Part shown: positions 2,288 through 27,837 of the stretch, piece by piece
Position numbering within the stretch: the stretch's first letter is position 1
Layout: each line of letters starts with the position of its first letter
Source: Rhodanobacteraceae bacterium
GTDB lineage: Bacteria; Pseudomonadota; Gammaproteobacteria; Xanthomonadales; Rhodanobacteraceae
Direction of reading: 5' to 3'
NCBI GenBank assembly: GCA_004299705.1
Contig: SCQS01000054.1
Span: 124,001-188,000, forward strand
DNA: 64,000 nt
Notes under the pieces: generated by a model
Seen by the model: only the letters and a program-made list of their open reading frames with translations
Told to the model about the DNA's origin: nothing
Database searches by the model: none
Translations under genes and position numbers: made by a program

Positions 2288-2374
2288 CGTCATTCCCGCG
2301 AAAGCGGGAATCCAGTGGCTTTGGCGATCACCATCCATGGCACTGGGTCCCGGCCAGTCCATGGCCGGGATGAC
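2288..2374. repeat. Family B (dRS3-like) element, copy 1
   Basis: It starts with CGTCATTCCCGCGAAAGCGG and ends with the complementary GGCCGGGATGAC, and has an inner CCCGCG/CGCGGG-type hairpin. It fills most of the sucA-sucB gap. The same ends recur at 7363-7440 (inside roxA) and 27770-27837; a longer relative is at 10609-10731. In transcripts it would fold into paired stem-loops between two operon genes. Confidence 0.8.
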
Positions 2375-6388: not shown

Positions 6389-7651
6389 TCAGCGCCGGCG
6401 CAATGTGACGCAACCCGCGTCGATCAAAAGCGCAAGCAGGGCCATGCCGCGCGCACGCTGCGGCAATTTCGCAAGGCGCGCGCCATCGAACGCGCGCGTC
6501 CCGGATCCCAGTTCACGTGCCCATGCAACGGGCGCGTCGAACGCGTTGCCGGCGACATATAGACGGGCGTCGCGACCGTGCGGGCGCCATGCGAAACGGT
6601 TCCACGGGTCACGTTCCAGGATGGAATGTGGGAGACGTTGCGCGAGTTTGTTGCGATCGATCGGGCGTTTGCGCGGCGCGGGCACCTGCGCAACCCGGTA
6701 GCGGGTAATGAAACGGCCGAACCAGTCGGCGAACGCGCCGTCGTCGAGCATGCCGGCGGCGGGGCCGAGCGCGTGGCGGGCGCGGCGCAGCGCGTTGTCG
6801 TCGATTTCCCCGGTGTGTGTGACGGGCTTCAGGTCGGGATCGGCAAGGCGCCGCGATTCCGGCAACGCTTCCGCGACCCGCGCCGCGAAGTCGAACAGCA
6901 ACTCGCCGGCGGCCGGCGCGCGCATGCCGATGGAATACGTGGTGCACTCGCCGACGGCCACGCCGTCGTGCGGGACGCCGGGCGGCAGGTACAGCATGTC
7001 GCCCGGTTCCAGCGTCCACGTGTGGGTGGGTCGGAAGCTGCGCAGCAGTTTCAGTTCCACGTCGTCGCGAAACGCGGTGGACGGGTTGGGACGCGCGTCG
7101 ATGGACCAGCGGCGCTGCCCCGAGCCTTGCAGCAGGAACACGTCGTACTGGTCGACGTGCGCCCCGACGCCACCGTTGTCAGTGGCATAGCTGATCATCA
7201 CGTCGTCGATGCGCCAGCTCGGGATAAATGTGAAATGATCCAGCAGCGCCGCGGTGTCGGCGTCCCACTTGTCGACGTCCTGTACCAGCAGGGTCCAATG
7301 TGATTTCGGAAGTTTCGCGAAGGCCGCGTCGTCGAAGGGGCCGTTCAGAACCTGCCACCTGCCGTCATTCCCGCGAAAGCGGGAATCCATTTTCCCCGTC
7401 CCTGGCACTGGATCCCGGCCATTCCCTGGCCGGGATGACGGTGCGCGCATGCGGATGACGATTCGCGCCAGCGCGCCTTCCATGCACGCGAGTCCGGCCA
7501 ATTCATCGGGCGACAGCGGTGGCGTGAAATCGGGCAACGCGCCGCGAATCAGCAGCGGACGTTTTTGCCAGTAATCGCGCAGAAAGCGCGCCGGCGGCAT
7601 GCCCAGTGGCTGGCCATTGCGGGCGCGGACCTGGATCGACGGCGCAGCCAT
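6389..7651 (-). CDS. roxA: Ribosomal protein L16 arginine hydroxylase (cupin, YcfD/RoxA type)
   Basis: 2-oxoglutarate/Fe(II) oxygenase with a JmjC-type cupin, 420 residues; the E. coli homologue YcfD hydroxylates an arginine of ribosomal protein L16. The iron triad is seen as His165, Asp167 (GAHVDQYDVF) and His228 (PPGVPHDG), and the substrate-side motif WRIDDVMISY is present. Compared with my recollection of E. coli YcfD, about 30 residues (about 67-96, ending DSRFRGN) are extra. They coincide exactly with an in-frame dRS3-like repeat at 7363-7440 and lie between a LARIV and a DGRWQVLNGPF segment matching ESRLV and DGKWQVSHGPF of YcfD. The reading frame stays open, so the protein may tolerate the insert. 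It starts one base after the purB stop; in E. coli ycfD also lies near purB. Confidence 0.9.
   Translation of the reverse strand: MAAPSIQVRARNGQPLGMPPARFLRDYWQKRPLLIRGALPDFTPPLSPDELAGLACMEGALARIVIRMRAPSSRPGNGRDPVPGTGKMDSRFRGNDGRWQVLNGPFDDAAFAKLPKSHWTLLVQDVDKWDADTAALLDHFTFIPSWRIDDVMISYATDNGGVGAHVDQYDVFLLQGSGQRRWSIDARPNPSTAFRDDVELKLLRSFRPTHTWTLEPGDMLYLPPGVPHDGVAVGECTTYSIGMRAPAAGELLFDFAARVAEALPESRRLADPDLKPVTHTGEIDDNALRRARHALGPAAGMLDDGAFADWFGRFITRYRVAQVPAPRKRPIDRNKLAQRLPHSILERDPWNRFAWRPHGRDARLYVAGNAFDAPVAWARELGSGTRAFDGARLAKLPQRARGMALLALLIDAGCVTLRRR
7363..7440. repeat. Family B element inside roxA
   Basis: Copy 2 of the dRS3-like family: it begins CGTCATTCCCGCGAAAGCGG and ends GGCCGGGATGACG. It is translated in frame as part of roxA, giving the tell-tale peptide DSRFRGND. 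The ends match the copy between sucA and sucB nearly base for base, which shows that the segment is an insertion and not native roxA sequence. Confidence 0.85.
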
Positions 7652-27769: not shown

Positions 27770-27837
27770 CGTCATGCCCGCGAAGGCGGGCATCCATTGA
27801 AACGGACATTTGGATTCCCGCTTGCGCGGGAATGACG
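27770..27837. repeat. Family B (dRS3-like) element, copy 3
   Basis: It begins CGTCATGCCCGCGAAGGCGGG and ends CGCGGGAATGACG. It lies directly upstream of aguA and creates a false N-terminal extension of the aguA frame. Confidence 0.75.

What the first reader, a model, noticed from the sequence alone, without database searches (positions are those of the whole stretch)
7363..7453. A mobile-type repeat translated in frame inside an L16 hydroxylase gene
About 30 extra residues in RoxA (67-96) are exactly a dRS3-like repeat with CGTCATTCCCGCGAAAGCGG and GGCCGGGATGACG ends, copies of which also lie in intergenic gaps. The catalytic His165-Asp167-His228 triad is intact and the frame is open, so the insertion is tolerated or was selected. 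Repeats encoding peptide inserts are known in Rickettsia (RPE), but I know of no RoxA case.
Basis: partly seen in the sequence, partly recalled or inferred. Interest (0 to 1): 0.7.

Follow-up and report, generated by a model that had tools for sequence, protein, structure and literature searches.

The report
Mobile repeat translated inside RoxA hairpin
A short mobile DNA palindrome has landed in frame inside the gene for a ribosome-modifying enzyme and is predicted to be translated as a floppy loop; such insertions are a known oddity, but here related bacteria have repeatedly filled the very same hairpin with different copies.

Summary
The 78 bp at 7363-7440 form a head-to-head pair of CGTC-tagged REP palindromes (superfamily of Neisseria dRS3 and Rickettsia RPE-6/RPE-4). 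They lie in frame in roxA (6389-7651, minus strand) and encode residues 71-97. About 40 related copies occur in the genome. The HxD...H triad (165/167/228) is intact, the core evolves under purifying selection, and AlphaFold2 shows the insert as a low-confidence loop between two well-modelled strands.

Beyond the finding: the same hairpin is empty, at one fixed length, in 6 of 16 sampled species of the genus and in 10 of 12 distinct genes of a sister genus. In the others it is filled with differently built material, seven times clearly REP, in at least two reading frames and at slightly different points. One origin for all is rejected. HrpA, Mfd, a methylmalonyl-CoA-mutase-type protein and a PxpB-like protein also carry in-frame REPs. 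The RoxA insert changes as fast at replacement as at silent sites, so I read it as tolerated, not selected.

In-frame REPs are a known kind. The RoxA case and its clear same-site recurrence are new instances, not a new category.

The parts
6389..7651 (-). roxA (ycfD), 50S ribosomal protein L16 arginine hydroxylase, JmjC_2 plus RoxA-like winged helix, 420 aa
   Evidence: Pfam JmjC_2 5e-39 and ROXA-like_wH 4e-11; solved homologues 4csw, 4ccl, 4lit
7363..7440 (-). in-frame head-to-head CGTC REP dimer, codons 71-97
   Evidence: absent from insert-free relatives; single-strand fold z = -3.3
7363..7389 (+). REP unit A: CGTC, 8-bp stem ATTCCCGC/GCGGGAAT, loop GAAA, tail CCA (CGTC-1 type)
   Evidence: Read from sequence; definition in PMC3733652
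7409..7440 (-). REP unit B: CGTC, 10-bp stem, 5-nt loop, tail CCA (variant unit)
   Evidence: Read from sequence; fold
2288..2374 (+). related REP dimer in the gap between the 2-oxoglutarate dehydrogenase E1 gene and the next gene
   Evidence: 82% identity over 1-77 of the element; sequence
27770..27837 (.). related head-to-head REP pair in an intergenic gap

Best explanation
A CGTC-type REP dimer, a non-autonomous mobile palindrome with about 40 relatives in this genome, inserted into the turn of an N-terminal beta-hairpin of roxA in a phase that kept the frame open. It is translated as a roughly 27-residue flexible surface loop. The enzyme core folds around it and is maintained, while the insert drifts neutrally. 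Recurrence at this hairpin comes mainly from tolerance: REPs insert widely, most coding insertions are removed by selection, and this turn is one of few places where such an insert does little harm. Shown: element identity, frame, empty sites, recurrence, low-confidence-loop model, neutral-like insert against constrained core. Inferred: that the protein is made and active, and the insertion mechanism itself.
For: Element identity and copies. Insert-free relatives of fixed hairpin length. At least 6 state changes on the tree; one clade rejected, p-AU 8e-38 for all filled rows and 1e-4 for the seven clear REPs. Loop of low pLDDT between strands 62-68 and 98-103 in a model of mean pLDDT 91.8. Core pN 0.11-0.19 vs pS 0.44-0.56; insert 0.29 vs 0.28. 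REP units depleted in coding sequence, 4 seen vs about 20 expected, yet present in frame in other proteins.
Against: Expression and activity are untested. The insert comparison rests on one pair of 31 codons, which may or may not share one insertion. The concentration on one hairpin is higher than a uniform rate predicts, so tolerance alone may not be the whole story. The tree backbone of the genus is poorly resolved.
Confidence: 0.8

Rival explanations
1. Target preference: the hairpin DNA attracts REP insertion. Several empty sites read GCGAAACGC or GCGAAGCG, resembling the REP core GCGAAAGC, so a hairpin-recognising enzyme or homology-directed copying may hit it repeatedly.
For: Five or more insertions in one gene among 16 lineages has P about 8e-8 under a uniform rate; GCGAAACGC in the empty sites of G014 and G012.
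Against: The motif follows from the conserved AKR codons; not all empty sites have it; insertion points differ by several codons; the three insert-free HrpA linkers printed show no such motif. Tolerance varying among loops explains the same concentration.
Confidence: 0.12
2. Selection: a longer or variable loop on RoxA is useful, for instance by changing L16 access or ribosome hydroxylation, and repeats are merely a source of loop sequence.
For: Repeated filling; some relatives in other genera have lengthened the same hairpin with non-REP sequence.
Against: Insert pN about equals pS; inserts differ in frame, composition and length; most relatives keep the short hairpin at fixed length.
Confidence: 0.05
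3. One ancestral insertion followed by repeated loss and by conversion among repeat copies, rather than repeated gain.
For: G000 and G011 share offset and element type, and may be one event; G003, G004, G005 and G008 share a similar left part.
Against: Empty sites keep the ancestral HD(A/P)KRD codons, which excision from replaced sequence would not restore; filled copies differ in boundary and frame; one clade rejected; two unrelated fillings in the sister genus. Recombination with empty alleles is not excluded.
Confidence: 0.1
4. roxA is a pseudogene here, or the insert is an assembly artefact.
For: None found.
Against: Open frame, intact triad, constrained core. Filled copies exist in independent assemblies, including the single-contig genome G004.
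Confidence: 0.02

Closest known systems
CGTC REP dimers inside ORFs (Di Nocera et al. 2013, PMC3733652)
   Same: Tag, stem, loop, tail, head-to-head pairing, mostly intergenic with some in-frame copies encoding 20-30 residues; no linked transposase.
   Different: That survey names neither RoxA nor this lineage in the text I read; same-site recurrence was noted there only for recB of two Xanthomonas species.
Rickettsia palindromic elements (RPE-4, RPE-6)
   Same: Same superfamily (CGTC-4 and CGTC-1 in PMC3733652); in-frame palindromes translated inside conserved proteins.
   Different: Rickettsia is obligate intracellular; here the hosts are Rhodanobacteraceae-like genomes mostly known from metagenomes, with element copies mainly intergenic.
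Neisseria dRS3
   Same: CGTC-1 REP units of the ATTCCC...GGGAAT type.
   Different: dRS3 units lie mostly in large clusters (PMC3733652); here they are dispersed singles and dimers, some inside genes.

Membership tests
CGTC-1 REP | CGTC tag, 8-bp stem with AT first, 4-nt loop, CCA tail | tested here: met
   Unit A 7363-7389 fits exactly.
CGTC-1 REP | Same stem and loop sizes in the partner unit | tested here: not met
   Unit B has a 10-bp stem and 5-nt loop, so the pair is a heterodimer and unit B is only CGTC-like.
CGTC REP superfamily | Head-to-head dimers, many copies, mainly intergenic | tested here: met
   52 pairs in the sampled stretches; about 40 copies in the genome; 4 units in coding sequence vs about 20 expected.
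REP mobilised by RAYT | RAYT gene flanked by the repeat | tested here: not met
   Three Y1_Tnp genes found, none with the repeat within about 1.5 kb.
Classical MITE | Target-site duplication | tested here: not met
   0 of 52 dimers share 3 or more flanking bases as a direct repeat.
RPE-like protein-coding palindrome | In-frame insertion in a conserved gene, absent from relatives, frame kept | tested here: met
RPE-like protein-coding palindrome | Insert present in the mature protein | not testable with these tools
   Needs proteomics.
RoxA/YcfD L16 arginine hydroxylase | JmjC_2 domain, HxD...H triad, RoxA-like winged helix | tested here: met
RoxA/YcfD L16 arginine hydroxylase | L16 hydroxylation activity | not testable with these tools
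   Needs assay or mass spectrometry.

The most novel reading that the evidence does not exclude
The RoxA hairpin is a true target or a selected site for REP insertion: either REPs preferentially enter hairpin-like DNA resembling their own loop, or a variable loop on an L16 hydroxylase is favoured, making this a natural insertional hot spot in a ribosome-modifying enzyme.
Probability: 0.17. Interest if true: 0.7.

Novelty: new member of a known kind. Interest (0 to 1): 0.45.

Why it matters
It extends RPE-like protein decoration to another lineage, a Rhodanobacteraceae-like genus known mostly from environmental genomes. It also gives a natural replicated experiment: related species with the same hairpin empty or filled by different palindromes. 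That allows tests of how REPs move, whether they favour certain sites, and how much foreign peptide an enzyme loop accepts.

Tried and rejected
RAYT link: three Y1_Tnp genes are present but not flanked by the repeat. Target-site duplications: none. A degenerate DNA pattern for filled roxA sites across the family was badly designed and matched nothing, not even the known filled genomes, so it says nothing. Most apparent long ORFs across the 30 fetched genomic copies look like intergenic read-through; only RoxA and HrpA were clearly genic. In the gamma-glutamyltransferase-like ORF of L117 the repeat lies upstream of the likely start, not inside. The original RPE paper (PMC186582) is not held.

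Full report
OBSERVATION. The window holds roxA on the minus strand, 6389-7651, 420 codons. CGTCATTCCCGCGAAAGCGG at 7363 is also found exactly at 2288, and with 1-2 mismatches at 27770 and 27818; chance gives 0.05. The element with both CGTC heads spans 7363-7440, 78 bp, codons 71-97. About 40 related copies lie elsewhere in the genome.

ANATOMY. Unit A (7363-7389) is CGTC-ATTCCCGC-GAAA-GCGGGAAT-CCA. Unit B (7409-7440, opposite strand) is CGTC, a 10-bp stem with 5-nt loop, CCA. The two are arranged head to head around a 19-nt spacer. The single strand folds better than shuffles (z = -3.3). This is the layout given for CGTC REPs: CGTC tag, 8-9-bp stem, 4-5-nt loop, CCA tail, head-to-head dimers, no known transposase (PMC3733652). 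That paper equates CGTC-1 with Neisseria dRS3 and R. conorii RPE-6, and reports intragenic dimers encoding 20-30 residues.

EMPTY AND FILLED SITES. In insert-free relatives the hairpin reads ARIV-LHDAKRD-RW or close to it, at one fixed length. Six of 16 sampled genomes of the genus are empty (G002, G006, G012, G013, G014, G015). Seven have clear REP-derived inserts (G000, G011, G008, G003, G005, G007, G004), G010 keeps a REP end, and G001 and G009 have unrecognised inserts. This sorting into clear and unclear is my own reading of the DNA. In the sister genus 10 of 12 distinct genes with a readable hairpin are empty and two are filled, in separate clades with different elements.

INDEPENDENCE. 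On a 2,281-column tree of SucA, HrpA and RoxA (hairpin left out) the filled/empty state needs at least 6 changes; the count does not tell gain from loss. Holding all filled rows as one clade is rejected, p-AU 8e-38, and the seven clear REPs at 1e-4. The backbone is weak, so I rely most on supported sister pairs (G010/G015 100/100, G004/G006 99/95, G011/G002 92/88) and on DNA boundaries: G008 keeps AKRD after its insert, the sister-genus L037 keeps DRW right after its insert, and a G004 REP is read in another frame (PGMT against GND). G000 and G011 share the offset and may be one event. I count about five to six independent insertions over the two genera; that number is my reading of these results, not a computed value.

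STRUCTURE AND SELECTION. AlphaFold2 on 41 homologues gives mean pLDDT 91.8; the insert falls to about 49-68 between strands 62-68 and 98-103. Low pLDDT is consistent with disorder but is not proof of it. Nearest solved structures are YcfD of R. marinus and E. coli. H165, D167 and H228 are kept. Core pN is 0.11-0.19 against pS of 0.44-0.56; the insert between G000 and G011 is 0.29 against 0.28. So the enzyme is constrained and the insert is not, within the limits of one short comparison.

NOT ONLY ROXA. HrpA of the same genome carries FPRKRESSV...LDSGSPLHGVRND in a linker where relatives have other repeat-like inserts or shorter linkers. In a 2-Mb sample from three genomes, 315 orthologue pairs of G004 and G014 gave four genes with CGTC-REP-derived inserts: RoxA and, by my naming from sequence, Mfd and a PxpB-like protein in G004 and a methylmalonyl-CoA-mutase-type protein in G014. 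REP units inside orthologue-supported coding sequence are 4 against about 20 expected, and one of these four lies near an ORF end and is probably intergenic. Under a uniform rate, five hits on one gene in 16 lineages has P of about 8e-8, or 2e-4 over 2,700 genes (the gene number is assumed, and two of the five to six events are in the sister genus, so the figure is rough). Rates surely differ among loops, so this shows concentration, not its cause.

INTERPRETATION. REPs spread, most coding hits are purged, and a few loops absorb them. RoxA's hairpin is such a loop. Target preference is possible: some empty sites resemble the REP loop, but the insert-free HrpA linkers printed do not and insertion points wander. 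The mobilising enzyme is unknown; Y1_Tnp genes exist but are unlinked, and dimers leave no target duplication.

NOVELTY. In-frame REPs are known; same-site REPs were noted for recB in two Xanthomonas species. My searches found no report of RoxA or of this lineage, but the library is partial and supplements were not read. I file this as a new member of a known kind, with unusually clear recurrence.

Noticed in passing
L119:1-3035 (G000:C43:20268-23300), hrpA: HrpA of the window's genome carries a full REP dimer in frame in a linker (about residues 490-533 of the fragment); congeners have other repeat-like inserts there and at a second site near residue 155.
   Followed up: partly
G004 and G014 stretches L170-L249: In-frame REP-derived segments in proteins I read as Mfd and PxpB-like (G004) and a methylmalonyl-CoA-mutase-type protein (G014).
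   Followed up: partly
G004 and G014 stretches L170-L249; hrpA loci L145-L154: Two other repeat families look translated in frame: SPESRVPSP / GTRDSGLGTR type and LPPLAGEGARRADGG type, in HrpA, MetG-like and mutase-type proteins.
   Followed up: partly
L141, L142, L143: Three Y1_Tnp (RAYT-like) genes in the window's genome, none flanked by the CGTC repeat within about 1.5 kb.
   Followed up: partly
52 REP dimers in the sampled stretches and L111-L140: No target-site duplications; flanks often read GCT before CGTC and AGC after GACG, as if the inverted ends extend outward.
   Followed up: partly
L014 (G004 roxA): Besides the long hairpin insert, G004 RoxA has a second extra segment (PWLRVDAESNRQKREGDH) in the C-terminal half, origin unknown.
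   Followed up: no
L041, L043, L062, L093: A few RoxA proteins outside the two genera (UBA703, Dokdonella fugitiva, Lysobacter sp. Root494, a Lysobacterales MAG) have the same hairpin lengthened by sequence in which I recognised no REP.
   Followed up: no
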